The position numbers were made by a program, and so were the translations under genes. The notes beneath the pieces are model-generated. The model did no database searches, was not told where the DNA came from, and worked only from the letters and a program-made list of their open reading frames with translations. A stretch of 64,000 nucleotides of DNA. Origin: Raphanus sativus (Eukaryota; Streptophyta; Magnoliopsida; Brassicales; Brassicaceae). This document shows positions 27,228 to 52,050 of the stretch, piece by piece. Positions within the stretch are counted from its first letter, which is position 1; the number at the start of each line of letters is the position of its first letter. The stretch lies in the NCBI RefSeq assembly GCF_000801105.2, contig NC_079516.1, positions 49,645,265 to 49,709,264 on the forward strand, given 5' to 3'.

Positions 27228-28346
<1,119 letters not shown>

Positions 28347-28847: not shown

Positions 28848-29217
28848 TAAAAAACTGCAATCTTTTAATCAAGGGGGAATTTGCTGTATATTCATAAGGG
28901 CCAAGAAACTCAAGAATCTAACCATGCTACAGGACCGGCCCATTGAAGAGACAGGTTTGGGCGAAGCTTGCCGAAACAACCCCTCCAAGCGCGTACGCGT
29001 GACCAACAAACGTGAGAAAAAAACATGTGCTCAATTGCTTGTACCAAACCTATCGATAGTATAGTCTGTCTAATCAATATCCTAACCAAACGCTAATTAT
29101 ATTCAAAATCGCAAATTCCCGCTCTTAACAACTGTGTCGCTTTTATTAAACCGAGACCCATTTAATAGCTTCTTATCTATACTGTTTCACTGTGAAAATA
29201 GTAAAGAGAAAGAAAAG

Positions 29218-32200
29218 ATGTCTGAAGATGACGATTTCTCAAGAGTTAAAGCACTACGAGACAACGATCAGGTATGGAGTACCGACTTTAAAGCTATTTA
29301 TTACCGTTCATTGTTGTTGTTGGGATGGATATATGATAGGTTAGGTTAAGTATTTAAGTTCTTAATGATAGGTCCTTCATATCCGACTTATAGTTGTGTG
29401 GTTTGTGAAAAAATAGAAGTGATAGAGAAACTGTTAAAACAGATAAGTCGGCAGTTAACAAGAAAATCTATAATCGTTATACTAGACTATATAGGCCTGA
29501 TCAATAGAATAGCAAACTGATGAACAAGTGTCATCTGCCTTTTCGTTGCAGCTGACTGAGCAGGACGACTGTACGGTGATAACGGGAACATGGGTCCGAG
29601 AGGAAGACGGAAAATGGATTTTTGATACTCTGATAGAGGATGAAAGAAATACCATTACCGTGAACCCTCTAATGGAATACGAAGACTTGGTGAACCTGGT
29701 GAAGGAAACCCTGAACATCCGCGCAAAGAACGTAACACTCAAGCTCTCATACCAATATCCTTCATGGATGGAGATAGACGATGGGGATGGTTCAACACCA
29801 CAGTTCATATCTGACGATCATGAGGTCGAGGTTTTTGTCCAAATGAGGCGCAAAATCGAGGAAGTTAACTTGTGTGTTACTATCTCAGAGGTGATCGATG
29901 GTATCCCAACAAACCATCGAAGACCCCACTATGCGAATGTAACAGATCAAACCCTGCTGAGAAACGAAGATGATGAGGACAGTGAATCCGATGAAGGGTT
30001 TGAGGAAGACTGGCTCGAGTTTGCGATATCCGAAACACCTCTGACATGTCCTCCCATCCAGAATGACGTGGGTGGAAGTTTCGGTGTGCAGCCTAAACAG
30101 ACTATTCCATACAACAGAAATGGAATAGTAATACGCGACCCGCTGATACGGCTTGCGAGTCCTCCACACGAAGCTACTTATCGAGGGAAAGGAAAAGGTA
30201 TTGCTACAGAACCTGACAAATGGGAAGCTGCTGATAAACTCCTTCAACCACAAATGTCAACAAACAAAGGTGTATTCGGGGGAAATGGTGAGAGCAGTCG
30301 TACGGTGCGTCGTCGCTTGTTTGAGGATCCCCGCGCGCCACCACAGGGAGATATCAAGATGGAGGAACCTTGCCAAGCAGAACCTGAGCCCATAGCACAA
30401 CCTCTTCTTACAACCACTCCGGTTGCAGCTCAACCAAGTAGCCTATACACGTGGACACGATTCCAAGACTCTTTGCATGACCTGCTTAATGACGAAAGCT
30501 CTGAGCCGGTGCTCTTTGGACGTGATGCCCCACCGGTTATAGAAAGCACCGACGAAATTGGTAAGATATTTGAAAGACTATACTATAAGTAAATATGGTA
30601 TAGAACGTAAACTGACGTTCAATATGTGATCATCTGTAGGGTTGGTTGAAGCTTTAGAAGCTGTCCCATATGAAGGGGACAATCTGTTTGTGGGACAGGT
30701 GTTCAAATCAAAGAATGACTGCAAAATTAAGATTGCAATTCATGCCATTAACCGGAAGTTCCACTTCAAGACAAAGCGCTCAACCCCCGCCTTTATGGTT
30801 CTAATTTGCGTCGCCATAGACTGTCCTTGGAGAGTGTACGCTGCACGGATCGATGGAACAGGGAATTTTCAGATAAGGCAAGCAACTTTCAGGCACTGCT
30901 GCTCGGTTGATGCGAGGAGGAACTACCACAAGTTGGCAACAACACAAGTGATTGGGGAGCTCATACAATCCCGATTCATCGGAATCAAGCGAGGACCAAC
31001 ACCAGAAACCATAAGAAAGATTATGCTGGACGACTACAACGTCAATGTTTCATACTGGAAATCTTGGAGGGCACGTGAAATTGCTATGGAAAGTGTGTTA
31101 GGATCTATGGCCGGAAGCTACGCACTGATGCCTGCATACATGGGCCTGCTATTAACGACAAATCCTGGCTCCCTCTGCGTCATAGAAAAGACAGAGAGTG
31201 ACGATGGAGGTGTTCTTTTTAAGTATGCCTTCATAGCATTTGGGGCATCCATCAAAGGCTACCGCTACATGAGAAAAGTAATTATCATTGATGGAACAAG
31301 TCTGAAAGGGAAGTACGGAGGATGTTTAATGTCCGCTTGCGCACAAGACGGAAATTATCAAATCTTTCCTCTTGCTTACGCGGTGATGGATAGTGAGAAC
31401 GATGAATCATGGGAATGGTTCATGATGCAGCTTAGAACCTTTGTTGACAATTCAGACGAGTTGGTTTTCATATCTGACCGCCACGGTAGCATCTACTCTG
31501 CAATAAACAAGGTGAGCAATATAAATCAGGTCGACTGTCTATGTTAATAATATATATAGTATAGTCTAAATATTAGTGAAATTGTTATGTAGGTGTTCCC
31601 CTCTGCATCACATGCGGCTTGCACAGTTCACTTGTGGAGGAACATCAAGGCCCGTTTTAAATCTAAAAGACTAGCCTCTCTTATGTCGGCTGCAGCAAGA
31701 GCGTATACTGTGGAAGGATTCAATAAGAAGTTTCTTGATATTCAACGTGCCAGCCCAGGGTGTGCAGGGTACTTGGTTGACATAGGTATGCAGTACCTCT
31801 TATATATTAAACTCGCGTAGTTGTGTATACTAATTGAATAGTTACTGATGTTATGCGGGTAAAATGTAGTTGTTGTTTACTATACTATATATATTAATAT
31901 GATAGTATAGTAACAAATACTCTTCATTCCTGTGTCCAGGTTTCACTCATTGGACACGCGCTCATTTTCAAGGAGAAAGGTTCAATATAATGGACTCAAA
32001 TATTGCAGAATCATGGAATTCAGTGTTGAAAGAAGCCAGAGAGTACCCCCTCATCTCCATGTGTGAGTACATACGTACTACTATCATGAGTTGGTTTGCA
32101 CTTCGCCGTGCAAAAGCTATGGAGCATAAGGGGGCACTAACGCCGATGGTGCAACGCCAAGTGGAAGTCAACTTTGAGGCATCGACAGCGTTGGCTGTAT

Positions 32201-32940
32201 GTGGTATTAGCGAAACCGAGTTTCAAGTGAAGGCACAAACTGGAGAGTGTTTCTTGGTCAACCTCTTAGCTGGAACATGTTCATGCAATGCATATGAGCA
32301 GTTACGAATTCCATGTCGCCATGCAGTGGCGGCAGCTGGAAGAGCCAACATCCCAACCGAGTCATTGGTTGCAGCTGCGTACTTTGCGGACACGTGGCAT
32401 AGCGCGTATGAGGCAAAGATTTACCCAATACCATCTGTGGGGGGAAAAGAAGTAGGAGGAGAGTATCACGGCGATCTCCTACCGCCTGCGGTGAAGAGAC
32501 CACCGGGGAGGCCACGAAAGGTGCGCATTCTGTCGCGAGGTGAAGACAAGGTATTGATTTCCATATTTAAACCTCACTATACTTTTTCACATAACCATAT
32601 AGTATAGTTTCATGCCACTGAAATGCCATGATTGACTGAGATTATTATGTCCATATTATGAGATACAAATACATAGTCTCGGTAGCCTTTCAATATTTAA
32701 TCTTTTCTTTAGCTTTAAGGATTGTGGTGTGTGTTGTGTAGGCTTAGGTTCTATGTTTGGCTTTATGTTCGCACAGCAACTGACTATACTATAATATTCT
32801 GATAAACAGTCTGAATATTGTTTCTCACAACCTCCACATTTTCAATTGTTGAACAGCACGCAGGACGTAACGGTTGCAGGAGATGCACACGATGCAGGAA
32901 AGAAGGCCATAACAGAGCCTCCTGCCGTGGTGCGATATAA
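29218..32940 (+). CDS. MULE (MuDR-family) transposase, apparently intact
   Basis: Six exons: 29218-29271, 29552-30560, 30640-31511, 31593-31785, 31940-32550, 32857-32940 (2823 nt, 940 aa, no stop or frameshift). The N-terminus (about 35-105) looks like the PB1-like fold common at the start of plant MULE transposases (LVKETLNIRAKNVTLKLSYQ). An acidic linker follows. The MuDR N-terminal domain is at about 370-430 (LFVGQVFKSKNDCKIKIAIH). The catalytic MULE domain contains Asp572 in IIIDGTSLKGKYGG, Asp634 in FISDRHGS and the CTVHLW motif. A SWIM zinc finger (CSCN…CRHA, from residue 823) follows, and then a GRP-type stretch PPGRPRK. The last exon encodes a CCHC zinc knuckle (C923-x2-C926-x4-H-x4-C). 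The product would bind the element ends and cut and paste them. Every intron carries at least part of the ATAGTATAGT motif. Confidence 0.92.
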
Positions 32941-33299
32941 AAAAAAACTCTATTATAAGAGGGGGCTTGTGGAAGGGGGGCAGGAATGAAGTTTTTGTTG
33001 CCTTGGCGAAATAAGGTTTCCACGCATCTGCGAAGATGGGGTGATGTTACGGAAGCAGCTATGGTGTTTTCAAGCTTCTAAAATACTAGTGTATACCAAA
33101 CCTGTTTGCAGCATACACAAGTATTTTAGAGCATTCCATAAGTTGGTAGTTTAAGTATCTGTTAATAGGTTGTCGGTGCTGTTTGTATATATGGTCGCCA
33201 CAATGTAACCTTCCACTTTTGTGTAAGATAAACGAAAAGCCCTTATTCCCGTTAATCTTTTGCCTTTATCCAAACGGAAGACATAGATACGGAAAGACT

Positions 33300-36200
33300 A
33301 AACTATCTTTCATATAGTATGGTAAAAAAATATGAGTCCGAGTAGGGAGATAAAAACGGCACAAGTATCAAATGATAAAGTTAATACAACACATTAAATG
33401 ATTTGTGATATAGTATGCCTTTATAACAGAGGAGGACCAGAGTGATGTAGCAAATTAAAAACCCTCACCACTCGGCGTACTATACTACACTTGTCATATA
33501 GTATAGTGTCAGATAAACAAACAAACAAAAAGCCATATCCACAAAACACAAATAGTATACCCTTAACCCATATAGTTAACCCTAAACCCAAATCATATAC
33601 CCAAATCCTATACCCTAAACCCAAACCGTATACTATAAACCCAATCTGTAAACCAAAAAACCAACTTATATACACATATAATACATTAGGCTATAATATA
33701 CACGTACTATAGTATAGTCACAGCCAAACAAACAAGGATGAAAACATAAGCACTAAACCCAATAACTAAACCCTAACCCATATAGTAAATCCCATACCCA
33801 ATACTAAACCGTAAACCATATTGTAAAGCGTAAACCTAAATACTAAACTTTAAACCCTTACCGCATACTATAAACCCTATCTCTAAAGAAACACAATAAC
33901 CATATCATACTTTGCGCTATACTACACGCTGTATATAGTATGGACACAGTCCCAGTTACGAAACCCTAAACCCAAATACTAAGCCCTATACCTAAACCCT
34001 TAACCCAAACTGAAACCCAAACCGTATACCAAATTGCGAAATCTAAATCTAAACCCTAACCGAATAATATAAACCCTATATCTAAAGGAACACAATAACC
34101 ACACCATACTATACGCTATACTACACGCATTATATGGTATGGACGAAGAAAAGGAAACACAAATAAAGCCATATGACCTAAACCGAAACCGTAGTCCCAA
34201 ATACTACTGTGCGCTATACTACATGCAGTATATAGTATGGATCCAGACAAGGAAACAAACATAAAGCCTAATGATCTAAGCCCAAATCGTAGTCCAAAAT
34301 ACGGAACCCTAAACCCAAATACTAAACCCTAAACCCTAACCATAACCCCAAACCCAAACCATATACCAAAATTCGAACTCTAAATCTAAATCCGGAATTC
34401 TAAACCCATACCAGGCCTCGTACTATACCCCGGTATACATATAGTATAGTGTAAGATAAACAAAATACTAAACCCGAAATACCAAACTCTATAAACATAC
34501 CAAACGTTAAGCTATACTATAAACATCCTATAGTATAGTCTTACATAAACAAAGAAAAATGAAAACATATGCAGTATACCCAAATACTAAACACTAAACC
34601 CATATAGTAAACCCCTAACCCAATACTAAAACCTAAAGCATATAGTAAAGCCTAAACCCAAATACTAAACCCTTACCCGAAATAGTAAACACTAAACCCA
34701 AATAGCATACTATAAACCCTATCTCTAAAGAAACCCTATACTACATGCAGTATATAGTATGGACACAGACAAGGAAACAAACATAAAGCCTAACGATCTA
34801 AACCGAAATCGTAGTCCCAAATACCGAACCCTTAACCGAAATACTAAACCCTAAACCCTAACCCTGAACCCTAACCCAAACCCAAACCATATACCTAAAT
34901 ACGAACTCTAAATCTAAATCCCAAATTCTAAACCCATACCACTCCTCGTACTATAATACGCTATACATATAGTATAGGGTAAGATAAACAAACAAACAAA
35001 AAGCCGTATGCACTAAACACAAATACTATACCCTAAACCCATATAGTTAACCCTAAACACAAATCCTAAACCCAAATCCTAAACCCTAAACCCAAACCGT
35101 ATACTATAAACCCAATCTCTAAACCAAAACACCAAACTCTATAAACATACATGATTTTATGCTATACTGTAAACATCCTATAGTATAGTCAACGACACAC
35201 AAACAAGCATGAAAACATATGCGCTATACCGAAATACTAAACCTAAACCCCAAACCCTATAGTAAACCCTAAAGCTTATAGTAAAGCCTAAATACAAAAA
35301 GTAAACCCTAATCCCAAATAGTCAACCCTAAACCCAAACCGCATACTATAAACCCTATCTGTAAAGAAACACAATAACGTGACCACACTTTGGGCTATAC
35401 TACATTCAGTATATAGTATGGACTCAGACAAGGGCTAAACCCTAAATACCAAACTCTATAAACATACCATACGTTACGCTATACTATAAACATCCTATAG
35501 TATAGTCACAGACAAACAAAGAAGCATGAAAACATATGCAGTATACCCAAATACTAAACCCTAAACCCATATAGTAAACCCCTAACCAAATACTAAACCT
35601 TAAAGCATATAGTGAAGCCTAAACCCAAATACTAAACCCTAAACCCAAATAGTAAACCCTAAACCCAAACATAATACTATAAACCCTATCTCTAAAGAAA
35701 CCCTATACTACATGCAGTATAAAGTATGGACCCAGACAAGGAAACAAACATAAAGCCTAATGATGAAACCCAAATCGTAGTCCCAAATACCGAACCCTAA
35801 ACCGAAATACTAAACCCTAAACCCTAACCCTGAACCCAAACCCAAACCCAAAGCATATAACGAAATAGGAACTCTAAATCTAAATGCCAATTTCTAAACC
35901 CATACCACTCCTCGTACTATACCACGCTATACATATATTATAGGGTATGATAAACAAACAAACAAAAAGCCGTATGCACTAAACACAAATACTATACCCT
36001 AAACCCATATAGTTAACCCTAAACGCAAATACTAAACCCAAATCCTAAACCCTAAACCCAAACAGTATACTATAAACCCAATCTCTAAACCAAAACACCA
36101 AATTCTATAAACAGACAATACTTTACGCTATACTGTAAACATCCTATAGTATAGTCAAAGACAAACAAACAAGCATGAAAACATATGCACTATACCCAAA

Positions 36201-39200
36201 TACTAAACCCCAAACCCAATACTAAACCCTAAAGCATATAGTAAAGCGTAAACCCAAATACTAAACCCTAAACCCAAATAGTCAATCCTAAACCCAAATC
36301 GCATACTATAAACCCTATCTGTAAAGAAACACAATAACGTTACCACACTTTGCGCTATACTACATTTAGTATATAGTATGGACTCAGACAAGGAAACAAA
36401 CATAAAGCCATATACTACATGAGGTATATAGTATGGACGCAGACAAAGAAACAAACATAAAGCCTAATGATCTAAACCCAAATCGTAGTCCCCATTACTA
36501 AACCCTAACCCCAAATAGTAAACCCTTAACCATAACCATGAACCCAATCCAAAACCCAAACCGTATACCGAAATCCAAACGCTAAATCTAATTCCAGAAA
36601 TCTAAACCCATACCAGTAGGCGTACTATACTACACTTTACATATAGTATAGTGCCAGATAAACAAACAAACAAAAAAGCATATGCACTAAACACAAATAC
36701 TATACCCTAAACCCATATAGTTAACCTTAAACCCTAAACCCTATACCCTAAACTCCTACACCCTAAACCCAAACCGTATACTATAAACCCAATATGTAAA
36801 CCAAAATCCCAAACTCTATAACCATACCTTACTTTAATATAAACTATTACCATCGTATAGTATAGTCCGAAACTAACAAACAAGCATAAAGCCAAATGCA
36901 CTAAACCCATATAGTTAACCCTTAACACATATGGTAAACCGTAAACCCAAATCGTAAACCCTAAACCCAAACCGAATACTATCTACCCAATCTCTTAACC
37001 AAAATCCCATGGCTAAACCGAAATCCCAATGGCTAAACAAACAAAAAGCCGTATGCACTTAACACAAATACTATACCCTAAACCCATATAGTTAACCCTA
37101 TACCCAAATACTAAACCCAAATCCTAAACCCTAAACCCAAACAGTATACAATAAACCCATTCTCTAAACCAAAACACCAAATTCTAAAAACAGACAATAC
37201 TTTATGCTATACTGTAAACATCCTATAGTATAGTCAAAGACAAACAAACAAGCATGAAAACATATGCACTATACCCAAATACTAAACCCCAAACCCAATA
37301 ATAAACCCTAAAGCATATAGTAAAGCCTAAACCCAAATACTAAACCCTAAACCCAAATAGTCAACCCTATACCCAAATCGCATACTATAAACCCTATCTG
37401 TAAAGAAACACAATAACGTTACCACACTTTGCGCTATACTACATTTATTATATAGTATGGACTCAGACAAGGCAACAAACATAAAGCCATATAACCTAAA
37501 CCCAAACCGTAGTCCCTAATACTACGTTCCGCTATACTACATGAGGTATATAGTATGGACGCAGACAAAGAAACAAACATAAAGCCTAATGATCTAAACC
37601 CAAATCGTAGTCCCCATTACTAAACCCTAACCCCAAATAGTAAACCCTTAACCATAACCATGAACCCAATCCAAAACCCAAACCGTATACCGAAATCCAA
37701 ACTCTAAATCTAATTCCAGAAATCTAAACCCATACCACTCGGCGTACTATACTACACTTTACATATAGTATAGTGCCAGATAAACAAACAAACAAAAAAG
37801 CATATGCACTAAACACAAATACTATACCCTAAACCCATATAGTTAACCTTAAACCCTAAACCCTATACCCTAAACTCCTACACCCTAAACCCAAACCGTA
37901 TACTATAAACCCAATATGTAAACCAAAATCCCAAACTCTATAACCATACCTTACTTTAATATAAACTATTACCATCGTATAGTATAGTCCGAAACTAACA
38001 AACAAGCATAAAGCCAAATGCACTAAACCCATATAGTTAACCCTTAACACATATGGTAAACCGTAAACCCAAATCGTAAACCCTAAACCCAAACCGAATA
38101 CTATATACCCAATCTCTTAACCAAAATCCCATGGCTAAACCGAAATCCCAATGGCTAAACAAACAAAAAGCCGTATGCACTAAACACAAATACTATACCC
38201 AAAACCCATATAATTAACCTTAAACCCAAATACTAAACCCAAATCCTAAACCCTAAACCCAAACAGTATACTATAAACCCAATCTCTAAACCAAAACACC
38301 AAATTCTATAAACAGACAATACTTTATGCTATACTGTAAACATCCTATAGTATAGTCAAAGACAAACAAACAAGCATGAAAACATATGCACTATACCCAA
38401 ATACTAAACCCCAAACCCAATACTAAACCCTAAAGCATATAGTAAAGCTTAAACCCAAATACTAAACCCTAAACCCAAATAGTCAACCCTAAACCCAAAT
38501 CGCATACTATAAACCCTATCTGTAAAGAAACACAATAACGTTACCACACTTTGCGCTATACTACATTTATTATATAGTATGGACTCAGACAAGGCAACAA
38601 ACATAAAGCCATATAACCTAAACCCAAACCGTAGTCCCTAATACTACGTTCCGCTATACTACATGAGGTATATAGTATGAACGCAGACAAAGAAACAAAC
38701 ATAAAGCCTAATGATCTAAACCCAAATCGTAGTCCCAATTACTAAACCCTAACCCCAAATAGTAAACCCTTAACCATAACCATGAACCCAATCCAAAACC
38801 CAAACCGTATACCGAAATCCAAACTCTAAATCTAATTCCAGAAATCTAAACCCATACCACTCGGCGTACTATACTACACTTTACATATAGTATAGTGCCA
38901 GATAAACAAACCAACAAAAAAGCATATGCACTAAACACAAATACTATACCCTAAACCCATATAGTTAACCTTAAACCCTAAACCCTATACCCTAAACTCC
39001 TACACCCTAAACCCAAACCGTATACTATAAACCCAATATGTAAACCAAAATCCCAAACTCTATAACCATACCTTACTTTAATATAAACTATTACCATCGT
39101 ATAGTATAGTCCGAAACTAACAAACAAGCATAATGCCAAATGCACTAAACCCATATAGTTAACCTTTAACACATATGGTAAACCGTAAACCCAAATCGTA

Positions 39201-39330: not shown

Positions 39331-39761
39331 ATTGATAAAAGTTCAGTGATAGAGGAACAACAACATATATATGGGATATCGCCTGATTGGAATTTGGGTA
39401 TGCGAAATTCACAGAAATATCCTATGTCATGTGTAGGATGAACATTTAATAGAAATGCGGATTGAAATCTGGAAACTTAGAATAATGGCATCCACATACT
39501 ATACTATAGTTTATATGGCATAGTCTGCGGAACAGTTGCATGCAAAATAGTTTAGCAGACATATAACTGCATAGTAATTAATCAGAACGGATGCACGAAA
39601 GTTACTAACACAAACCACATAAGAAAACCAAAATACCGTTAATGACAATGAAATAAACATAGCAACAATGTAGAGTGTTTGGAGAAAGTAGGTTTAAAGA
39701 AAAAACTGACAAAGAGGGAGGTCCAAATAAACAGGCACACAGACAATTAAATTAGAAGTAT

Positions 39762-42700
39762 TTATTTGGATGGGGAAACCGGAAAGTCAACCAAATATTT
39801 GGGGTTGAATGTCCCAAAAGCTTCAACTGCATAGGTCTGAGCTGCAAGTGCAAGAGCCTCCGCGTTAAGATGTGCTGCCTGAGAGATGTTATTGCTGGCA
39901 TGCAGTTCCATAAGTAGAATCGATGCAATACAAGAGAATTCTGCAAAATATTTTAGAATCCGTCAACACGAGCAACCAATCTAAAGTAATCAGAAATACA
40001 AACTATTCTATATATGCGGGTAAAATAGTATGGATAGTAGCGTACCTCTTTGTTCACACAACAATGAGAGATCAAGACGCCTTATGGGCATTGCACCTTC
40101 GGCCGATGCTTTCCCGCTGTTAAGCCCTATAAGTAGGGGTAGAAGAACGACAATCGGATTCAAGACGGCTACGATCTTGTCGTCACTAAGACATGACGGG
40201 TTACAATCTAAAACATGAATGCTCCAGTTGGCTATATCAACGACAACACCAATCCAATGCCACCTGTCCGCTTGCAATGGGAAGTATAATACTTGGACTT
40301 TAGCATCCCACGTCATATTAGGGAACCCTGGATTTGCGAATATATTGGAGAAGCTGAAATTGCCTATGTCCTTGACACGACAGAATTGCTGGTATTCAAG
40401 ACGAAGGGATTCCACAAAAGATGCTGGCAAAAAATCATAAGTTGTGATCCCCGCAACACGGAGGCGCCTTCGAATAAATGTTACCACCATGTCTGCGGCC
40501 TGTAGAAATTTAAACATAAGGGGCGAATTGAGACGGTGAAAATATATAGTTACAGAGATTACCTTTGGTGTTTGCATCTGTGCTGAATCAAAAAAGGACT
40601 GGAAAACCGTATTGTCAACGGTAACACCTTCCCCTATATCGTACTCCCTACACGGAAAACATAATAAATATTAGTGGTTAGAGGTTTGTACGAATAAGGA
40701 TGATGTTATGATACCTTGCTGTCTGCATAACGGTGCGAAAACCGGCTACACGGAATGCATTAGGGCGCACACATGGTGCAAATCGACCAACAAAAGGGCC
40801 AACATTTGTTTCTGCCACAAAAGATCCCGATGTTTTTGCAGGGGACGTCGCAACAGTTGAAGGGACCTCAGGAATATCTGGCTTTTTTGTTTCTGGAACA
40901 AGAGACCCCGATGGGTTTGCTAGTGACGTCGCAGCCGGTGAAGGCTCCTCAGGAATAGTTGGCATTTTCGTTTCTTTACCAGACTGTTTTGGTTTGGTGG
41001 TAGCAGCAGAGGAAGCCTCCTCCTTCATTGTTGGAACTTTGTTCGAAACTTGTTTTGCACGGGATCCACCTTTTTTACCCTTCTGTTTCTTGACAGGAAG
41101 TGGAGGAGGCGTATATTTGGAGTTCGGGCATCGAGCCCTTTTGCTTGACCGCCTCTGCCTTTCACCGTCAATAATGTTTTCGCTACCAACTTCGCCTGTT
41201 GTTGGTTGGTCTGTCACATCGGAGTTGAGTTGTTGTTCTGAGGACACACCCTGGGATGCCTGCGAAAATGTAAATTCACATTGTTAGTTATCCCCTAACA
41301 ATACAGAAGTGGAAAGAAAGAACAGCTTAGTTTCAGGTAAGTTTGTTCCATACTATTATTCCATACGAGTACAGTATGAAATTAAAATATATTAATCTTA
41401 CATTGTCTCCACCAATCCCAGATGTTTCAGGCGCATCAGAAGCGACCTGCAAAGCTGGATCGGAAACAATAACATCACTTTCCATATCTACTGTCCCACC
41501 CTCGCTATGTCCTTCTTTATCAGGGGCTTCCGAATCAGTCTGCAAAGACAAAAAAATGGTAAGTTCCATACTATTATTGATCCCAAAATAGTATGGAACA
41601 AACTTACCTCTTCGTTTGGAATCTCAGCAGATTGAGGCCCACGTATAGGAAGCTGAGCAACAGCGATCTCCAAAGATGGATCGGAAACTACATGATGGCT
41701 TTCCACATTTGAGGACTTATCTGATCCAATGGCAGCCTCGGCATTTCCTTCATTCTCAGTGGCTTCAGAAACAGCCTGAAAATGACAAAAACGGTAGAAA
41801 GTTCGGTAAGATCTTCAAATAAGTGTTCACTGTCAATAAGTTACTATACTATACTATTTCGGTGTATAGTATTCTAGTTTGTAATAGTGACTAAATAATG
41901 TGGTCTCGCAATAATCGACGTTACTATGGAAACAAAACTCGAGACAAGCTACGTTGAGACTCTACAAACAGGATAAATACACGGCACTTACAGCTAGCTC
42001 CGCAATTATATCCTCAATACAAGCAGTATCGCGTTCAGTCGGACTGGACATCCTTTCAGGTGATGCATCCTCTGGAGATTCGACAGGAAAAGCCGGTGAT
42101 AAACTACCAGGTGATAAACGACCACTCTCGCCAGGACTTGTCTGCACAGGTAATTTAGGGTGAGAAACAACAATTCCATACCATTTTTATTATATAGTAT
42201 AAAAGCGACGAACCATCGTCTCGGGGACGGCAGAAGGGACCGTAGGATGGGTAGAAACAGGGCGGACGTCATCTCCTCGAACTTGCGTACGCACTGAAGA
42301 GCCTAAAAGGACATCCTTTAAGGACTGAATTTCGCCACATATGCCTTCTTTTAAGCTTGTTACAATGGGTAAAGCGCGGGCATGTAGTTCGGTTGCAACC
42401 AAACGTGCGAGCGTAGATACATCAAACACTCCTGGAAGCCCCTCTGTATTGGCGTTTTCAGGCCGGTCGGCCTCAGCATTCCCAGCAGGCTGCCCAACTG
42501 TTTCTGAACTCGACGCTCCCAATCCTCCAACCCCTTTCGATTGCTTTGCATCAGAAGCCTTAACACCTCCACGCCAGGTATTGATTTCAAACGGGAACCT
42601 ATCTCGAATCAATGAGACCATGTGATTGACTCGTAGATCGTCCTTCTCAGCTGTCAATGGTGGGATGTCGGACCCTTCGCATAGTATGGAACGAACCGGA

Positions 42701-43678
42701 GCCTGCATGTACAGGACAAATAAGCACCTCAACATAAACGGAGAAAATGAAATAGTGTGCAACACATACCTGACCGGTTAGTTCAAGGGTTTGCACAGTC
42801 ACAATATTTATTTTCACAGACCGCGCACATACTCCATCAACAATGTCTTCAATCGGAAGATCATCAGAAACCAGATCTTCCCCTAAACGTGGATCTGCAA
42901 TTATTTGTGGGCAACTGCACACGGTGACTAGAACCATAGCATGGGCGAACCCTTGTATGGCAAGGGTGTCTTGGGCCAATTGTCCTGCCGACCTTATCTT
43001 TCCGCTTGAAACCGTTAACAAAAAAGACTCCCTTCCCCAGGGATATTCTAGAAACATCCCAATATCACCAACCATCTCTACTACCTCAGGTCTTAGCTGG
43101 GTTGAACCACTGGTTGGGCACAAAATACCTTCTACAAGAAGGAGAAGAGATAAACGCAATCGGGTTTCCTCGTCTTTATACTTTTCTTTTTGTGCCAATT
43201 TGGAGATGATCCAATCCGGAGTGATAGTCTCCTCACTGCCAAACAACGTTTTCCACATGACTCCATCCCCACCAACTTGCTTTGCCTTCGCTTTACCCTT
43301 TTTTTTCCCTTTAACCAATTGCTGTCCACCAAGAGAAGATGTTGGAGGCAACCCACAATTGAGTCCGGTCACTAAAGCAAATTCTCCAATACCATATCGT
43401 ATAGGCTTCCCTGCAAACAACCACCACAGCTCATACAGCTTCCGCGTAACCAACTGCCGGGACAATAACTGGTGAGCAAACATCACTGAAAATGTATGCC
43501 CTCCCATCAACATTAGCTGGCGAAACTGCGACTCAGCCAACAACTCCTGTTGAGCATCCGTTAGTGCTCCTTTTACAACTTCAATCCACCGCAAATTGAA
43601 GTAGTTGTTTATTCTTTTCCGCCCCGAGGGTTCATACCCCGTCTGAAACAAGCGCTCTGGCAAACCAAACTCTTCCAT
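39762..43678 (-). CDS. MULE-encoded DUF1985 / Ulp1-like cysteine protease protein (copy 1)
   Basis: Nine exons: 43678-42770, 42702-42214, 42141-41992, 41775-41608, 41539-41402, 41259-40715, 40647-40563, 40499-40046, 39940-39762 (3117 nt, 1038 aa, frame open throughout). Exon 1 (residues 1-303) matches the DUF1985 type: LFQTGYEPSGRKRINNYFN, LWWLFAGKPIRYGIGEFALV, TGLNCG. The middle is long and low-complexity, with Ser/Glu/Pro-rich segments and a basic patch (RQRRSSKRARCPNSKYTPPP). The C-terminus is a C48 (Ulp1) peptidase-like domain: His909 in DRWHWIGVV and Asp926 in HVLDCN, spaced 17 as in Ulp1. A candidate Cys983 sits in EFSCIASILL rather than the usual DCG. Genes of this kind are known from Kaonashi (KIU) and related MULEs. 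Possible roles are SUMO/ubiquitin-like cleavage or DNA binding with anti-silencing; neither is shown here. Upstream exon(s) near 44.8-45.0 kb may be untranslated. Confidence 0.88.
41843..41875. promoter_or_regulatory. ATAGTATAGT motif cluster in a Ulp1-like gene intron
   Basis: ACTATACTATACTAT at 41843-41857 followed by TATAGTATT about 8 bp later, forming an inverted pair in an intron. One of many such sites in the element (examples: 29055, 31556, 31879, 31901, 32597, 32783, 33496, 39497, 43890, 43911, 44129, 44606). Proposed protein-binding motif, see findings. Confidence 0.55.
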
Positions 43679-44640
43679 ACTGTAAATGCAAATAAATAAT
43701 TTTAGGTGTTGCATATTAAAAACAGAGATCGAAAGTCTACACTATTAAGTTCCATCAAATAGAACAGAAACAGAAATCGCTAACCATAAATTGTATCGCC
43801 AGTCTAGACTATATATATCCATGAAATAGTAAGGAAAGAATAAATCCTAGTAATCCTTGGCACAACAATATTTACAAAATTTTTAGTCCCATACTATACA
43901 TTTATTTATTATAGTATAGTCAGTATCTTTTGAAAGACTACTAATTCAGTTATGGAAACGAAGCCAACCCAACAGACAACACAACAGAACAAAGTAAAGT
44001 AAACATCAAATAATAATATGCATCCTACACTATGTATTTGCATTATATAGTATGGAAATAACAATCGTCACACGCAATGGAGTTTCCATACACCAACGCT
44101 AGCAAATTTATACTATATAGCAACATATTATAGTATAGTAAGGTAATCTGTTTCCATATAAACCAAACTCTTCCATACTGTAAATGCAAATAAATAATTT
44201 TAGGTGTTCCATATTACAAACAGAGATCAAAAGTCTACACTTTTAAGTTGCATCACATAGATCAGAAACAGAAATCGCTAACCCTAAATTGTGATCGCCA
44301 GTCTAGACTATATATATTCATCAAATAGTAAGGCAAAAATAAATCGTAGTACTCCTTGGCACAACAATAGTTACAATACTTTTCGTCCCATACTATACAA
44401 TTTATTATTATATTATAGTCAGTTTCTCTTCAAAATCTACTAATTTAGTTATGGAAACGAAGCCAACCCAACAGACAACACAACAGTACAAGGTAAAGCA
44501 AACATCAATTAATAATATGCATCCTACACTAAGTATTTGCATCATATAGTATGGAAATAACATTCGGCAGATGCAATGGCGTTTCCATAAACCAACGCTA
44601 CCAAAACTATACTATATAGTAACATATTGTAGTATAGTAA
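43663..44640 (-). repeat. About 500-bp tandem duplication at the 5' end of the Ulp1-like gene
   Basis: 43663-44160 and 44161-44640 are diverged head-to-tail copies: AACCAAACTCTTCCATACTG at 43663 and again at 44161, then matching blocks in the same order. The right copy duplicates the start codon region (ATG at 44176 on minus, reading MEEFGLYGN before leaving the frame). Both carry paired ATAGTATAGT motifs. Confidence 0.85.
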
Positions 44641-45202
44641 GTGTATCTGTTTCCATATGTCTCAGTCGCTTATGGAAACCATAGCAAACCAACACACACG
44701 AGAACCCTAAATGCTGAATCAAAGAACACAGACAACGAAAAGAAAAACAACCCAAAAACACACACCCAAGAACCCTTAATACTATTCAGAGAACACAGAA
44801 AATTTCGGTACTCACCTCCACCGCCGCTGATTTTCCCGTCCTCCTCAAATCGCTACACTGCGGACCAAAATTCACTCGTTAGTTTCGGAAACAGTTACTT
44901 CTGAAGCCGCCTCGCAATTAGATTTAAACAGTAGACTAAATTGCACAAGTTAATCGAGTGATTGTACCTTGATTTAATCGCTCCTCCACTCTGTAATCGA
45001 CCGAACCACCGTCAATCGCCACCGCTGCCGTAACCCTTACTTTCAGTTGCCGTAAACTTTCTCCGGCAAACACAGAGAAACTTTCTTTAGTTTTTTTTTG
45101 GTCTCGTGTAATGGTTTTGAATAAAAAACCGTTCAGTTTCCAAATCAACCGCTTTCGAGAAAATACTAGGCTGTGGGCCCAACAAAATTTCACGCGCAGG
45201 CC

Positions 45203-45302
45203 NNNNNNNNNNNNNNNNNNNNNNNNNNNNNNNNNNNNNNNNNNNNNNNNNNNNNNNNNNNNNNNNNNNNNNNNNNNNNNNNNNNNNNNNNNNNNNNNNN
45301 NN
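45203..45302. other. Assembly gap, 100 N
   Basis: Placeholder of exactly 100 N separating the two copies of the 6.75-kb repeat. The true size is unknown and may be zero or negative (an overlap). Confidence 0.99.
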
Positions 45303-48300
45303 CCCAAATACTAAACCCTAAACCCAAATAGTCAACCCTAAACCCAAATCGCATACTATAAACCCTATCTGTAAAGAAACACAATAACGTACCACACTTT
45401 GCGCTATACTACATTTATTATATAGTATGGACTCAGACAAGGCAACAAACATAAAGCCATATAACCTAAACCCAAACCGTAGTCCCTAATACTACGTTCC
45501 GCTATACTACATGAGGTATATAGTATGAACGCAGACAAAGAAACAAACATAAAGCCTAATGATCTAAACCCAAATCGTAGTCCCAATTACTAAACCCTAA
45601 CCCCAAATAGTAAACCCTTAACCATAACCATGAACCCAATCCAAAACCCAAACCGTATACCGAAATCCAAACTCTAAATCTAATTCCAGAAATCTAAACC
45701 CATACCACTCGGCGTACTATACTACACTTTACATATAGTATAGTGCCAGATAAACAAACCAACAAAAAAGCATATGCACTAAACACAAATACTATACCCT
45801 AAACCCATATAGTTAACCTTAAACCCTAAACCCTATACCCTAAACTCCTACACCCTAAACCCAAACCGTATACTATAAACCCAATATGTAAACCAAAATC
45901 CCAAACTCTATAACCATACCTTACTTTAATATAAACTATTACCATCGTATAGTATAGTCCGAAACTAACAAACAAGCATAATGCCAAATGCACTAAACCC
46001 ATATAGTTAACCTTTAACACATATGGTAAACCGTAAACCCAAATCGTAAACCCTAAACACAAACCGAATACTATATACCCAATCTCTTAACCAAAATCCC
46101 ATGGCTAAACCGAAATCCCAATGGCTAAACCCATATCATAATATGTTCGATACTACAAATAGGATATAGTATAGTGGAATTGATAAAAGTTCAGTGATAG
46201 AGGAACAACAACATATATATGGGATATCGCCTGATTGGAATTTGGGTATGCGAAATTCACAGAAATATCCTATGTCATGTGTAGGATGAACATTTAATAG
46301 AAATGCGGATTGAAATCTGGAAACTTAGAATAATGGCATCCACATACTATACTATAGTTTATATGGCATAGTCTGCGGAACAGTTGCATGCAAAATAGTT
46401 TAGCAGACATATAACTGCATAGTAATTAATCAGAACGGATGCACGAAAGTTACTAACACAAACCACATAAGAAAACCAAAATACCGTTAATGACAATGAA
46501 ATAAACATAGCAACAATGTAGAGTGTTTGGAGAAAGTAGGTTTAAAGAAAAAACTGACAAAGAGGGAGGTCCAAATAAACAGGCACACAGACAATTAAAT
46601 TAGAAGTATTTATTTGGATGGGGAAACCGGAAAGTCAACCAAATATTTGGGGTTGAATGTCCCAAAAGCTTCAACTGCATAGGTCTGAGCTGCAAGTGCA
46701 AGAGCCTCCGCGTTAAGATGTGCTGCCTGAGAGATGTTATTGCTGGCATGCAGTTCCATAAGTAGAATCGATGCAATACAAGAGAATTCTGCAAAATATT
46801 TTAGAATCCGTCAACACGAGCAACCAATCTAAAGTAATCAGAAATACAAACTATTCTATATATGCGGGTAAAATAGTATGGATAGTAGCGTACCTCTTTG
46901 TTCACACAACAATGAGAGATCAAGACGCCTTATGGGCATTGCACCTTCGGCCGATGCTTTCCCGCTGTTAAGCCCTATAAGTAGGGGTAGAAGAACGACA
47001 ATCGGATTCAAGACGGCTACGATCTTGTCGTCACTAAGACATGACGGGTTACAATCTAAAACATGAATGCTCCAGTTGGCTATATCAACGACAACACCAA
47101 TCCAATGCCACCTGTCCGCTTGCAATGGGAAGTATAATACTTGGACTTTAGCATCCCACGTCATATTAGGGAACCCTGGATTTGCGAATATATTGGAGAA
47201 GCTGAAATTGCCTATGTCCTTGACACGACAGAATTGCTGGTATTCAAGACGAAGGGATTCCACAAAAGATGCTGGCAAAAAATCATAAGTTGTGATCCCC
47301 GCAACACGGAGGCGCCTTCGAATAAATGTTACCACCATGTCTGCGGCCTGTAGAAATTTAAACATAAGGGGCGAATTGAGACGGTGAAAATATATAGTTA
47401 CAGAGATTACCTTTGGTGTTTGCATCTGTGCTGAATCAAAAAAGGACTGGAAAACCGTATTGTCAACGGTAACACCTTCCCCTATATCGTACTCCCTACA
47501 CGGAAAACATAATAAATATTAGTGGTTAGAGGTTTGTACGAATAAGGATGATGTTATGATACCTTGCTGTCTGCATAACGGTGCGAAAACCGGCTACACG
47601 GAATGCATTAGGGCGCACACATGGTGCAAATCGACCAACAAAAGGGCCAACATTTGTTTCTGCCACAAAAGATCCCGATGTTTTTGCAGGGGACGTCGCA
47701 ACAGTTGAAGGGACCTCAGGAATATCTGGCTTTTTTGTTTCTGGAACAAGAGACCCCGATGGGTTTGCTAGTGACGTCGCAGCCGGTGAAGGCTCCTCAG
47801 GAATAGTTGGCATTTTCGTTTCTTTACCAGACTGTTTTGGTTTGGTGGTAGCAGCAGAGGAAGCCTCCTCCTTCATTGTTGGAACTTTGTTCGAAACTTG
47901 TTTTGCACGGGATCCACCTTTTTTACCCTTCTGTTTCTTGACAGGAAGTGGAGGAGGCGTATATTTGGAGTTCGGGCATCGAGCCCTTTTGCTTGACCGC
48001 CTCTGCCTTTCACCGTCAATAATGTTTTCGCTACCAACTTCGCCTGTTGTTGGTTGGTCTGTCACATCGGAGTTGAGTTGTTGTTCTGAGGACACACCCT
48101 GGGATGCCTGCGAAAATGTAAATTCACATTGTTAGTTATCCCCTAACAATACAGAAGTGGAAAGAAAGAACAGCTTAGTTTCAGGTAAGTTTGTTCCATA
48201 CTATTATTCCATACGAGTACAGTATGAAATTAAAATATATTAATCTTACATTGTCTCCACCAATCCCAGATGTTTCAGGCGCATCAGAAGCGACCTGCAA

Positions 48301-51300
48301 AGCTGGATCGGAAACAATAACATCACTTTCCATATCTACTGTCCCACCCTCGCTATGTCCTTCTTTATCAGGGGCTTCCGAATCAGTCTGCAAAGACAAA
48401 AAAATGGTAAGTTCCATACTATTATTGATCCCAAAATAGTATGGAACAAACTTACCTCTTCGTTTGGAATCTCAGCAGATTGAGGCCCACGTATAGGAAG
48501 CTGAGCAACAGCGATCTCCAAAGATGGATCGGAAACTACATGATGGCTTTCCACATTTGAGGACTTATCTGATCCAATGGCAGCCTCGGCATTTCCTTCA
48601 TTCTCAGTGGCTTCAGAAACAGCCTGAAAATGACAAAAACGGTAGAAAGTTCGGTAAGATCTTCAAATAAGTGTTCACTGTCAATAAGTTACTATACTAT
48701 ACTATTTCGGTGTATAGTATTCTAGTTTGTAATAGTGACTAAATAATGTGGTCTCGCAATAATCGACGTTACTATGGAAACAAAACTCGAGACAAGCTAC
48801 GTTGAGACTCTACAAACAGGATAAATACACGGCACTTACAGCTAGCTCCGCAATTATATCCTCAATACAAGCAGTATCGCGTTCAGTCGGACTGGACATC
48901 CTTTCAGGTGATGCATCCTCTGGAGATTCGACAGGGAAAGCCGGTGATAAACTACCAGGTGATAAACGACCACTCTCGCCAGGACTTGTCTGCACAGGTA
49001 ATTTAGGGTGAGAAACAACAATTCCATACCATTTTTATTATATAGTATAAAAGCGACGAACCATCGTCTCGGGGACGGCAGAAGGGACCGTAGGATGGGT
49101 AGAAACAGGGCGGACGTCATCTCCTCGAACTTGCGTACGCACTGAAGAGCCTAAAAGGACATCCTTTAAGGACTGAATTTCGCCACATATGCCTTCTTTT
49201 AAGCTTGTTACAATGGGTAAAGCGCGGGCATGTAGTTCGGTTGCAACCAAACGTGCGAGCGTAGATACATCAAACACTCCTGGAAGCCCCTCTGTATTGG
49301 CGTTTTCAGGCCGGTCGGCCTCAGCATTCCCAGCAGGCTGCCCAACTGTTTCTGAACTCGACGCTCCCAATCCTCCAACCCCTTTCGATTGCTTTGCATC
49401 AGAAGCCTTAACACCTCCACGCCAGGTATTGATTTCAAACGGGAACCTATCTCGAATCAATGAGACCATGTGATTGACTCGTAGATCGTCCTTCTCAGCT
49501 GTCAATGGTGGGATGTCGGACCCTTCGCATAGTATGGAACGAACCGGAGCCTGCATGTACAGGACAAATAAGCACCTCAACATAAACGGAGAAAATGAAA
49601 TAGTGTGCAACACATACCTGACCGGTTAGTTCAAGGGTTTGCACAGTCAGAATATTTATTTTCACAGACCGCGCACATACTCCATCAACAATGTCTTCAA
49701 TCGGAAGATCATCAGAAACCAGATCTTCCCCTAAACGTGGATCTGCAATTATTTGTGGGCAACTGCACACGGTGACTAGAACCATAGCATGGGCGAACCC
49801 TTGTATGGCAAGGGTGTCTTGGGCCAATTGTCCTGCCGACCTTATCTTTCCGCTTGAAACCGTTAACAAAAAAGACTCCCTTCCCCAGGGATATTCTAGA
49901 AACATCCCAATATCACCAACCATCTCTACTACCTCAGGTCTTAGCTGGGTTGAACCACTGGTTGGGCACAAAATACCTTCTACAAGAAGGAGAAGAGATA
50001 AACGCAATCGGGTTTCCTCGTCTTTATACTTTTCTTTTTGTGCCAATTTGGAGATGATCCAATCCGGAGTGATAGTCTCCTCACTGCCAAACAACGTTTT
50101 CCACATGACTCCATCCCCACCAACTTGCTTTGCCTTCGCTTTACCCTTTTTTTTCCCTTTAACCAATTGCTGTCCACCAAGAGAAGATGTTGGAGGCAAC
50201 CCACAATTGAGTCCGGTCACTAAAGCAAATTCTCCAATACCATATCGTATAGGCTTCCCTGCAAACAACCACCACAGCTCATACAGCTTCCGCGTAACCA
50301 ACTGCCGGGACAATAACTGGTGAGCAAACATCACTGAAAATGTATGCCCTCCCATCAACATTAGCTGGCGAAACTGCGACTCAGCCAACAACTCCTGTTG
50401 AGCATCCGTTAGTGCTCCTTTTACAACTTCAATCCACCGCAAATTGAAGTAGTTGTTTATTCTTTTCCGCCCCGAGGGTTCATACCCCGTCTGAAACAAG
50501 CGCTCTGGCAAACCAAACTCTTCCATACTGTAAATGCAAATAAATAATTTTAGGTGTTGCATATTAAAAACAGAGATCGAAAGTCTACACTATTAAGTTC
50601 CATCAAATAGAACAGAAACAGAAATCGCTAACCATAAATTGTATCGCCAGTCTAGACTATATATATCCATGAAATAGTAAGGAAAGAATAAATCCTAGTA
50701 ATCCTTGGCACAACAATATTTACAAAATTTTTTGTCCCATACTATACATTTATTTATTATAGTATAGTCAGTATCTTTTGAAAGACTACTAATTCAGTTA
50801 TGGAAACGAAGCCAACCCAACAGACAACACAACAGAACAAAGTAAAGTAAACATCAAATAATAATATGCATCCTACACTATGTATTTGCATTATATAGTA
50901 TGGAAATAACAATCGTCACACGCAATGGAGTTTCCATACACCAACGCTAACAAATTTATACTATATAACAACATATTATAGTATAGTAAGGTAATCTGTT
51001 TCCATATAAACCAAACTCTTCCATACTGTAAATGCAAATAAATAATTTTAGGTGTTCCATATTACAAACAGAGATCAAAAGTCTACACTTTTAAGTTGCA
51101 TCACATAGATCAGAAACAGAAATCGCTAACCCTAAATTGTGATCGCCAGTCTAGACTATATATATTCATCAAATAGTAAGGCAAAAATAAATCGTAGTAC
51201 TCCTTCGCACAACAATAGTTACAATACTTTTCGTCCCATACTATACAATTTATTATTATATTATAGTTAGTTTCTCTTCAAAATCTACTAATTTAGTTAT

Positions 51301-52050
51301 GGAAACGAAGCCAACCCAACAGACAACACAACAGTACAAGGTAAAGCAAACATCAATTAATAATATGCATCCTACACTAAGTATTTGCATCATATAGTAT
51401 GGAAATAACATTCGGCAGATGCAATGGCGTTTCCATAAACCAACGCTACCAAAACTATACTATATAGTAACATATTGTAGTATAGTAAGTGTATCTGTTT
51501 CCATATGTCTCAGTCGCTTATGGAAACCATAGCAAACCAACACACACGAGAACCCTAAATGCTGAATCAAAGAACACAGACAACGAAAAGAAAAACAACC
51601 CAAAAACACACACCCAAGAACCCTTAATACTATTCAGAGAACACAGAAAATTTCGGTACTCACCTCCACCGCCGCTGATATTCCCGTCCTCCTCAAATCG
51701 CTACACTGCGGACCAAAATTCACTCGTTAGTTTCGGAAACAGTTACTTCTGAAGCCGCCTCGCAATTAGATTTAAACAGTAGACTAAATTGCACAAGTTA
51801 ATCGAGTGATTGTACCTTGATTTAATCGCTCCTCCACTCTCTAATCGACCGAACCACCGTCAATCGCCACCGCTGCCGTAACCCTTACTTTCAGTTGCCG
51901 TAAACTTTTTCCGGCAAACACAGAGAAACTTTCTTTAGTTTTTTTTTGGTCTCGTGTAATGGTTTTGAATAAAAAACCGTTCAGTTTCCAAATCAACCGC
52001 TTTCGAGAAAATACTAGGCTGTGGGCCCACCAAAATTTCACGCGCAGGCC
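45303..52050. repeat. Copy 2 of the 6.75-kb near-identical direct repeat
   Basis: Restarts inside the minisatellite and repeats everything up to CGCGCAGGCC, where copy 1 stops at the gap. Copy 2 then continues into the unique right end of the MULE (52051-52161). This is what two overlapping, unmerged contigs would give. Confidence 0.95.
46610..50526 (-). CDS. MULE-encoded DUF1985 / Ulp1-like protein (copy 2)
   Basis: Exact structural copy of the gene at 39762-43678, shifted by 6848 bp: exons 50526-49618, 49550-49062, 48989-48840, 48623-48456, 48387-48250, 48107-47563, 47495-47411, 47347-46894, 46788-46610. The frame is open as well. The one coding difference I noticed is in exon 1: NIVTVQ in copy 1 and NILTVQ in copy 2. 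If the assembly is wrong here, this and copy 1 are the same gene or two alleles. Confidence 0.85.

What the first reader, a model, noticed from the sequence alone, without database searches (positions are those of the whole stretch)
29055..51486. Short dyad motif TATAGTATRG spread through the element's non-coding DNA: candidate binding site of an element-encoded anti-silencing protein or transposase
ATAGTATAGT / ACTATACTAT variants occur in the transposase leader, in most introns of both genes, in spacers and throughout the minisatellite, often as inverted pairs 5-15 bp apart. I found almost none in exons (one half-site at about 42679-42690). They are rare in the flanking host DNA. VANC proteins of VANDAL MULEs are known to bind short motifs repeated in non-coding parts of their own element (YAGTATTAY for VANDAL21, as I recall) and to remove DNA methylation there. 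The AGTAT core here is similar. The hypothesis is that the DUF1985/Ulp1-like protein, or the transposase, recognises TATAGTATRG, giving an undescribed self-recognition system.
Basis: partly seen in the sequence, partly recalled or inferred. Interest (0 to 1): 0.9.

Follow-up and report, generated by a model that had tools for sequence, protein, structure and literature searches.

The report
Jumping gene tagged with self-recognition sites
A young radish transposon carries dozens of copies of a short paired DNA tag in its non-coding parts, most likely landing sites for its own VANC-like anti-silencing protein; this type of system is known from Arabidopsis, but the paired, fixed-distance arrangement of the tags is unusual.

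Summary
The motif is real. In the element (28873-52161, 9-bp target duplication), exact ATAGTATRG was seen/expected: transposase introns 6/0.11, DUF1985-gene introns 6/0.03, 5'UTR intron 7/0.05, minisatellite 28/0.71, exons 1/0.05; 40.6 kb host flank 0/0.48. Sites form divergent pairs, preferred centre distance 22 bp, CYATACTAT-N13-ATAGTATRG (12 pairs, at most 9 independent; 0 in 300 shuffles), 18 bp in the minisatellite. Relatives whose transposase introns keep only 36-60% identity still hold sites in 4-5 of 5 introns. Substitution conservation against a 96% copy is suggestive only (p 0.006 to 0.12 by how sites are defined). The DUF1985 exon's only solved-structure match is VANC21 (E 8.6e-10), a motif-binding anti-silencing protein. 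Best reading: a VANDAL/VANC-type self-recognition system in radish, differing from VANDAL21 by inverted, spacing-locked pairs and by a fused, probably dead Ulp1-like domain. Bases 45303-52050 are an unmerged contig overlap, so 13 of 57 TATAGTATRG are duplicates. Binding and demethylation are inferred.

The parts
28864..28872 (.). left 9-bp target site duplication TTTAATCAA
   Evidence: the border at 28873 is the start, or one base from it, of the similarity in four other copies
28873..52161 (.). the Mutator-like (VANDAL-type) element as assembled; about 16.4 kb once the duplicated contig overlap is removed; ends GGGGGAATTTGC... / ...GCAATTTCCC
29218..32940 (+). transposase gene, six exons (29218-29271, 29552-30560, 30640-31511, 31593-31785, 31940-32550, 32857-32940), 940 aa, MULE + SWIM domains
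29056..29064 (+). leftmost exact site ATAGTATAG, in the leader
29482..29512 (.). 22-bp dyad in transposase intron 1, one mismatch per half-site
30578..30603 (.). 17-bp pair in transposase intron 2
31556..31564 (+). single site in transposase intron 3
31880..31910 (.). perfect 22-bp dyad in transposase intron 4
32577..32607 (.). 22-bp dyad in transposase intron 5, one mismatch in one half-site (further exact site 32784-32792)
33455..39299 (.). minisatellite of telomere-like (AAACCCTA) filler with 28 exact sites; 22 divergent pairs at 18 bp
39762..43678 (-). DUF1985 + Ulp1-like (Peptidase_C48) gene, nine coding exons, 1038 aa, VANC21 relative
40003..40033 (.). 22-bp dyad in DUF-gene intron 39941-40045, one mismatch in one half-site
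41566..41596 (.). perfect 22-bp dyad (CCATACTAT/ATAGTATGG) in intron 41540-41607
42681..42689 (+). the only exonic exact site
43680..44815 (-). 5'UTR intron of the DUF1985 gene: 499-bp tandem duplication, 7 exact sites, seven 22-bp dyads at 43804-43834, 43889-43919, 44025-44055, 44108-44138, 44303-44333, 44388-44418, 44607-44637 (three of them are duplicates of three others)
45303..52050 (.). second copy of 38454-45202 (99.8%), read as an unmerged contig overlap
52162..52170 (.). right 9-bp target site duplication TTTAATCAA

Best explanation
The element is a two-gene VANDAL-type Mutator-like transposon of radish. Its DUF1985 protein is a VANC-type, sequence-specific anti-silencing factor. It recognises ATAGTATRG, mainly as divergent half-site pairs (CYATACTAT-N13-ATAGTATRG, about two helical turns centre to centre), probably as a dimer or as two molecules side by side. 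Sites are spread through introns, the 5'UTR intron, spacers and a minisatellite so that the protein coats the element; by analogy with VANC21 and VANC6 this would remove DNA methylation from it and leave other DNA alone. Shown here: enrichment, geometry, recurrence of the sites in diverged relatives, homology of the protein to VANC21, genome-wide pairing of transposase and DUF1985 genes.
For: Enrichment in introns, 5'UTR intron, leader, 3' spacers and minisatellite, none in 40.6 kb of host. Divergent geometry: 12 pairs at 22 bp against 0 in 300 shuffles; genome-wide CTATACTAT-N13-ATAGTATAG 111, reversed-pattern control 0; with gap 4-30, 302 against 3. In relatives L029, L014, L017 with transposase introns at 36-60% identity, 5, 4 and 4 of 5 introns hold a site (shuffle means 0.85-1.00) and 2, 4 and 3 of 5 a divergent pair at 17-23 bp (shuffle means at most 0.013). 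Window-defined exact sites differ from the C1 copy at 2/203 bases, other non-coding at 212/4324, p 0.006 (see against). The DUF1985 exon's only solved-structure match up to E 1 is VANC21, 9lnj/9lnk, E 8.6e-10. VANC21 binds YAGTATTAY in VANDAL21 non-coding DNA and VANCs have DUF1985 (PMC5735166 passages); TAGTAT is shared. Transposases of 44% identity or more have a listed DUF1985 gene within 20 kb in 57 of 74 cases, below 44% in 7 of 61; identities of the 59 convergent pairs correlate, r 0.95. Exact 22-bp dyads lie within 15 kb of 5 of 7 DUF1985 loci of at least 70% identity, 0 of 8 at 53-65%, 0 of 6 at 42-47%, 1 of 34 at 40% or less.
Against: No binding, methylation or expression data. [quoted passage not shown] The conservation test weakens when made symmetric: sites defined in the C1 copy 4/221 v 208/4283, p 0.03; sites defined in either copy 6/235, p 0.12; for G/C bases alone there is no difference (1/54 v 105/1512, p 0.26). 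1.5 kb upstream of a 57% DUF1985 relative still holds 3 exact half-sites and one 22-bp dyad with a single mismatch, so the motif turns over more slowly than expected from VANDAL21/VANDAL6, and the tier contrast holds for exact dyads only; four of its eight 53-65% loci are short or broken pieces. 35 of the 50 exact dyads examined lie more than 25 kb from any DUF1985 locus of at least 70% identity. Only the best 130 of 1008 and 135 of 1198 candidates were scored, so absence of a DUF1985 gene beside distant transposases is not shown. Helical phasing between dyads was inconclusive.
Confidence: 0.72

Rival explanations
1. The sites are bound by the element's own transposase, for synapsis or self-regulation.
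For: The transposase co-diverges with the DUF1985 gene, has a Mutator-type DNA-binding and a SWIM zinc-finger domain, and the motif follows both genes alike.
Against: No exact site in the first 183 bp of the element nor in the 498 bp tested at its right side, where transposases of this superfamily act (recalled); sites are densest in minisatellite and introns. A VANC relative in the same element explains them better.
Confidence: 0.1
2. The paired half-sites act in RNA: 9-bp hairpins in introns that help splicing or feed double-stranded RNA to silencing.
For: Divergent halves can pair; most introns of five elements hold sites. Four two-sided mismatches all keep pairing, and 21 of 95 one-sided ones would still allow a G-U pair.
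Against: In 54 imperfect 22-bp dyads of five elements, 95 of 99 mismatch positions are on one side only, 74 of them breaking the pair; spacing is fixed where a loop would vary; sites also lie in leader, spacers and a 5.8-kb minisatellite.
Confidence: 0.06
3. A host DNA-binding protein uses the sites.
For: 35 of 50 exact dyads examined lie far from any DUF1985 gene of this clade, several in other repeat families.
Against: The 40.6 kb of host flank hold no site; association with one transposon clade fits an element-encoded reader better. The other repeat families may be non-autonomous relatives (not tested).
Confidence: 0.07
4. Neutral spread: an AT-rich unit of the minisatellite was copied into introns by slippage and conversion, without function.
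For: Minisatellite and UTR-intron sites are amplified by tandem duplication; the symmetric conservation test is not significant (6/235 v 208/4283, p 0.12).
Against: Sites recur in introns that have otherwise lost similarity between relatives; exons are spared; the divergent spacing is kept where flanks differ.
Confidence: 0.05

Closest known systems
VANDAL21 / VANC21 of Arabidopsis thaliana (Hosaka et al. 2017, PMC5735166; passages read)
   Same: Mutator-like element with transposase plus DUF1985 protein; short motif with a TAGTAT core in introns, intergenic and terminal non-coding parts and in tandem repeats; protein homology.
   Different: Motif ATAGTATRG, not YAGTATTAY; divergent pairs at 22 (or 18) bp instead of same-orientation arrays; the protein has an Ulp1-like domain and no DUF287 match; motif kept over larger protein divergence.
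VANDAL6 / VANC6 (same paper, passages)
   Same: A different VANC with its own motif in tandem repeats of non-coding DNA.
   Different: Its motifs AGTTGTCC and AGTTGTAC are unlike the one here.
VANC systems of eudicots (Sasaki et al. 2022 EMBO J, PMC9016345; not held, title seen in reference lists, content recalled)
   Same: As I recall the abstract: VANC systems gained and lost DUF1985, DUF287 and Ulp1 domains; motif sequence, density and helical periodicity set specificity.
   Different: Whether this radish family, its motif or an inverted 22-bp pair is described there could not be checked.
ULP-like MULEs (Kaonashi; recalled, papers only seen in a search listing)
   Same: Mutator-like elements that carry Ulp1-like genes.
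   Different: Whether their Ulp1-like genes are of the kind seen here was not compared; here it is fused to DUF1985 and most relatives lack the catalytic cysteine.

Membership tests
Mutator-like element (MULE) | MULE transposase domain | tested here: met
   PF10551 E 6.5e-22, PF03108 E 4.2e-13, SWIM
Mutator-like element (MULE) | about 9-bp target site duplication | tested here: met
   TTTAATCAA in the window (alone such a match is about even odds by chance in the stretch searched, but both borders recur in other copies); TTAACAAAA at the C1 copy
VANDAL group | degenerate terminal inverted repeats (PMC10398659, passage) | tested here: met
   About 12 bp of imperfect terminal similarity; no blastn match over 13 bp between the ends
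VANDAL group | transposase closest to VANA of Arabidopsis VANDALs | not tested
   No labelled VANA sequence at hand
VANC protein | DUF1985 domain and homology to a proven VANC | tested here: met
   PF09331 E 2.3e-32; VANC21 9lnj E 8.6e-10
VANC protein | DUF287, shown with DUF1985 in the VANCs of Hosaka et al. | tested here: not met
   Only DUF1985 and Peptidase_C48 at E 0.01; recalled from the 2022 paper: not all VANCs have it
VANC target organisation | short motif dense in non-coding parts and tandem repeats, rare elsewhere | tested here: met
VANC target organisation | motifs arrayed in the same orientation (VANDAL21) | tested here: not met
   Divergent pairs dominate
VANC anti-silencing system | protein binds the motif | not testable with these tools
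   needs EMSA, DAP-seq or ChIP
VANC anti-silencing system | expression removes DNA methylation from motif-bearing copies | not testable with these tools
   needs a transgenic methylome
Active Ulp1 (C48) protease | His-Asp-Cys catalytic triad | tested here: inconclusive
   33 rows aligned, window included: His in 25, Asp in 27; Cys column A 19, G 5, C 2, T 1, P 1, gap 5; the window has a Cys there, without the usual Asp-Cys-Gly (the columns were picked from recalled knowledge of the Ulp1 site)

The most novel reading that the evidence does not exclude
A VANC-type protein with a DUF1985 domain and a dead Ulp1 module reads a two-part operator, ATAGTATRG half-sites in divergent orientation two helical turns apart, as a symmetric dimer. 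The element's introns act as operator carriers. The same operator has been taken up by other radish repeat families that lack the gene and ride on the same anti-silencer.
Probability: 0.37. Interest if true: 0.68.

Novelty: new variant of a known kind. Interest (0 to 1): 0.54.

Why it matters
How a transposon protein finds its own element and little else is an open question for VANC proteins. This radish family offers a defined two-half-site operator, intact genes, nearly identical recent copies (99.6-99.9% over the transposase side of three of them) and graded relatives in one genome, so protein-motif co-evolution and the role of spacing become directly testable. If the pair is the unit of recognition, it helps explain specificity from a short AT-rich word and suggests a compact route to locus-specific demethylation.

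Tried and rejected
Helical phasing between dyads: 7 to 15 distances per set, best periods scattered from 9.5 to 11.6; inconclusive. Structure of the DUF1985 exon: AlphaFold2 mean pLDDT 62, Foldseek found nothing significant, so nothing rests on the model. VANDAL21's own motif is not a feature here: AGTATTA 16 times in the whole window. RNA hairpins rejected on one-sided mismatches. I first read as motif and protein changing together; the 1.5 kb from a 57% relative showed the half-site and a near-perfect dyad there, so that claim is softened. The DUF1985 locus at C2:7274362 is not oriented as partner of the nearby transposase.

What the counts cover: relatives L012-L031 were picked because they hold a dyad, so their dyad counts are biased. 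Five of these 20 match one of the two proteins (L014, L017, L018, L027, L029); L027, a short match only, was not used further; the intron comparison used L029, L014 and L017 (with L014 and L017 close to each other) plus the C1 copy; L018 was used for spacing only. Of L029's 8 exact sites 4 fall in tblastn-covered stretches; introns 2 and 5 hold two exact sites each at matching distances, so I take these as intron sites read across by tblastn. One search lists 50 of 302 places (C1 and part of C2); centre distances there: 22 bp 19, 16 bp 10, 23 bp 8, 18 bp 7, 21 bp 3, others 3 (recounted). One search lists 50 of 111 places (C1 to C5:20.18 Mb); one search uses that part and the 55 DUF1985 loci there, so loci on C6-C9 and small contigs are not in it. 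Near-identical copies count separately.
Full report
OBSERVATION. The motif is real and strong. ATAGTAT occurs 61 times on + and 62 times on -; 113 of these lie within the element, 10 outside. I rebuilt both genes from splice signals; the transposase (940 aa, six exons) and the DUF1985-Ulp1 protein (1038 aa, nine coding exons) read through without a stop. With compartments fixed from these models and dinucleotide-preserving shuffles as control (500 for element parts, 100 for host), ATAGTATRG was seen and expected as follows: transposase introns 6 v 0.11, DUF-gene introns 6 v 0.03, 5'UTR intron 7 v 0.05, leader 1 v 0.00, 3' spacers 1 v 0.02 and 2 v 0.03, minisatellite 28 v 0.71, DUF-gene 5' flank 0, right end 0, transposase exons 0 v 0.03, DUF exons 1 v 0.02, left host 0 v 0.32 in 28.8 kb, right host 0 v 0.16 in 11.8 kb. 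Nine of 13 coding introns carry an exact ATAGTAT.

A CORRECTION OF THE ANATOMY. Bases 38454-45202 and 45303-52050 are 99.8% identical (11 mismatches, one gap) and both end exactly at a 100-N gap; most simply, two overlapping contigs were not merged. The C1 copy, fetched to its right end, has a single such stretch. So the element has one DUF1985 gene, and 13 of the 57 TATAGTATRG of the window lie in the second copy. The borders are 28873 and 52161: a 9-bp direct repeat TTTAATCAA flanks them; by itself a 9-mer shared between the stretches searched is about even odds, but the left border recurs at the same base, or one base in, in four other copies with other flanks, the right end recurs in the C1 copy, and that copy has its own duplication, TTAACAAAA. 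Without the overlap the element is about 16.4 kb. The best protein match is a radish protein at 97% over 54% of the query, so the host is radish or close to it.

GEOMETRY. Outside the minisatellite, 56 sites with at most one mismatch give 12 divergent pairs at exactly 22 bp centre to centre; next come six same-orientation pairs at 5 bp (overlapping half-sites) and three divergent pairs at 17 bp; 300 shuffles give none at 22 bp and at most 2 at any distance. Seven of the 12 lie in the 5'UTR intron, where a 499-bp tandem duplication makes three of them copies of three others, so at most nine are independent. The minisatellite uses 18 bp (22 pairs), amplified by its own repeats. In the whole 433-Mb genome CTATACTAT-N13-ATAGTATAG is found 111 times against 0 for the pattern read backwards; with a free gap of 4-30 bases, 302 against 3, and of the 50 places listed there 19 have the 22-bp spacing (recount). 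Many of these are repeat copies.

CONSERVATION. Compared with the copy at C1:18.16 Mb, bases in exact non-coding sites of the window differ at 2 of 203 (1.0%), other non-coding bases at 212 of 4324 (4.9%), exons at 118 of 5940 (2.0%); Fisher p 0.006; A/T bases 1 of 149 v 107 of 2812, p 0.04; G/C bases 1 of 54 v 105 of 1512, p 0.26; with one-mismatch sites 10 of 442 v 204 of 4085, p 0.009. A symmetric recount is weaker: sites defined in the C1 copy 4 of 221 v 208 of 4283, p 0.03; in either copy 6 of 235, p 0.12. So this test is suggestive only. Both genes show dN/dS near 0.5 against that copy (0.0155/0.0333 and 0.0157/0.0311), although that copy has stops. Stronger: in three relatives (L029, L014, L017; transposase segments 55-83% identical) the five transposase introns have only 36-60% identity to the window's, yet 5, 4 and 4 of 5 introns hold a site, and 2, 4 and 3 of 5 a divergent pair at 17-23 bp, against shuffle means of 0.85-1.00 and at most 0.013. 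L014 and L017 are close to each other, and all three were fetched because they hold at least one dyad somewhere. L014, L017 and L018 hold 29, 27 and 29 exact sites in 10 kb, 1, 0 and 0 of them in stretches matching the proteins, and 10, 8 and 10 pairs at 22 bp; L029 holds 8, 4 of them in tblastn-covered stretches that span introns 2 and 5.

WHO READS IT. The DUF1985 exon finds one protein of known structure: VANC21 (9lnj, 9lnk; E 8.6e-10; family profile E 6.3e-9, next match 0.044). VANC21 binds YAGTATTAY in non-coding parts of VANDAL21 in vivo and in vitro, VANC proteins carry DUF1985, and VANC6 has other motifs in tandem repeats (PMC5735166, passages). A 2026 meeting report mentions unpublished structures of VANCs with target DNA (PMC12859917, passages). 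Genome-wide, transposase relatives of 80% identity or more have a listed DUF1985 gene within 20 kb in 9 of 12 cases, at 61-66% in 4 of 6, at 44-55% in 44 of 56, below 44% in 7 of 61; in the 59 pairs arranged as in the window the two identities correlate with r 0.95. Both searches scored only their best candidates (130 of 1008; 135 of 1198), so absences among distant relatives are not firm, and near-identical copies count separately. Exact 22-bp dyads lie within 15 kb of 5 of 7 DUF1985 loci at 70% identity or more, 0 of 8 at 53-65%, 0 of 6 at 42-47% and 1 of 34 at 40% or less, on C1-C4 and part of C5. softens this: 1.5 kb upstream of a 57% relative holds three exact half-sites and, read by eye, one dyad with a single mismatch at the same spacing. 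So the half-site is older than the 70% clade, while perfect dyads are a feature of it.

THE ULP1 PART. PF02902 matches at E 7.2e-11, but in an alignment of 33 rows (window included) the catalytic cysteine column is A 19, G 5, C 2, T 1, P 1, gap 5, while His (25) and Asp (27) are kept. Most relatives are probably not working proteases; the module may bind a partner. The window protein has a cysteine at that column without the usual Asp-Cys-Gly context.

MECHANISM. Shown: sites, geometry, recurrence in relatives, homology. Inferred: the DUF1985 protein docks on divergent pairs along the element and, as VANC21 and VANC6 do, strips DNA methylation, letting the transposase gene be expressed. A 22-bp centre distance is close to two helical turns, which would put both half-sites on one face of the DNA; a dimer or two cooperating monomers would fit; the 18-bp form of the minisatellite does not fit that simple picture and is unexplained. 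Absence of exact sites from the element's outer ends argues against the transposase as reader. One-sided mismatches in 95 of 99 cases, 74 of them pair-breaking, argue against RNA hairpins; the four two-sided ones keep pairing.

NOVELTY. VANC-type self-recognition is known, so this is a variant of a known kind. New as far as I could see: the inverted, spacing-locked pair (VANC21 sites are in the same orientation; the words spacing, inverted, palindrom, dimer and periodic do not occur in that paper's main text as held), its recurrence through intron turnover, the fused and probably dead Ulp1 module, and the operator in other radish repeat families. Searches for VANC or VANDAL with Raphanus or Brassica (10 of 4,537 papers listed) and for VANC, anti-silencing and dimer (10 of 17 listed) showed no paper on such a system; the 2022 EMBO J paper could not be read and may cover part of it.

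Noticed in passing
window 38454-45202 and 45303-52050: Probable assembly artefact: 6.75-kb near-identical overlap on both sides of a 100-N gap, which makes the element look as if it had two DUF1985 genes.
   Followed up: yes
window 27542-27890 and 27994-28342: 349-bp perfect direct repeat in host DNA just before the other N gap (28526-28625); a true duplication or another assembly fault.
   Followed up: no
L009-L010 (G000:C4:37860001-37880000): A 99.6% copy whose similarity ends inside the minisatellite; no DUF1985 match in the fetched stretch. L010 holds a 100-N gap, so a gene lost in the assembly cannot be excluded.
   Followed up: partly
G000 C1:15.33 Mb, C2:19.01 Mb, C3:7.33 and 10.57 Mb, C4:32.11 Mb, C5:20.18 Mb: Another repeat family carries two perfect 22-bp dyads 0.5-0.8 kb apart, with no DUF1985 locus of the 70% clade within 25 kb; candidate non-autonomous riders. 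DNA not fetched.
   Followed up: partly
window 39762-43678, residues 909, 926, 983 of the protein: The Ulp1-like domain lacks the catalytic cysteine in most relatives, so it is probably a pseudo-protease there.
   Followed up: yes
window 43662-44658: 499-bp tandem duplication that includes the start of the coding exon; the upstream copy of the start region lies in the 5'UTR intron.
   Followed up: partly
window 3690-3929: Stretch of telomere-like (TTTAGGG) repeats in host DNA, similar in kind to the filler of the element's minisatellite.
   Followed up: no
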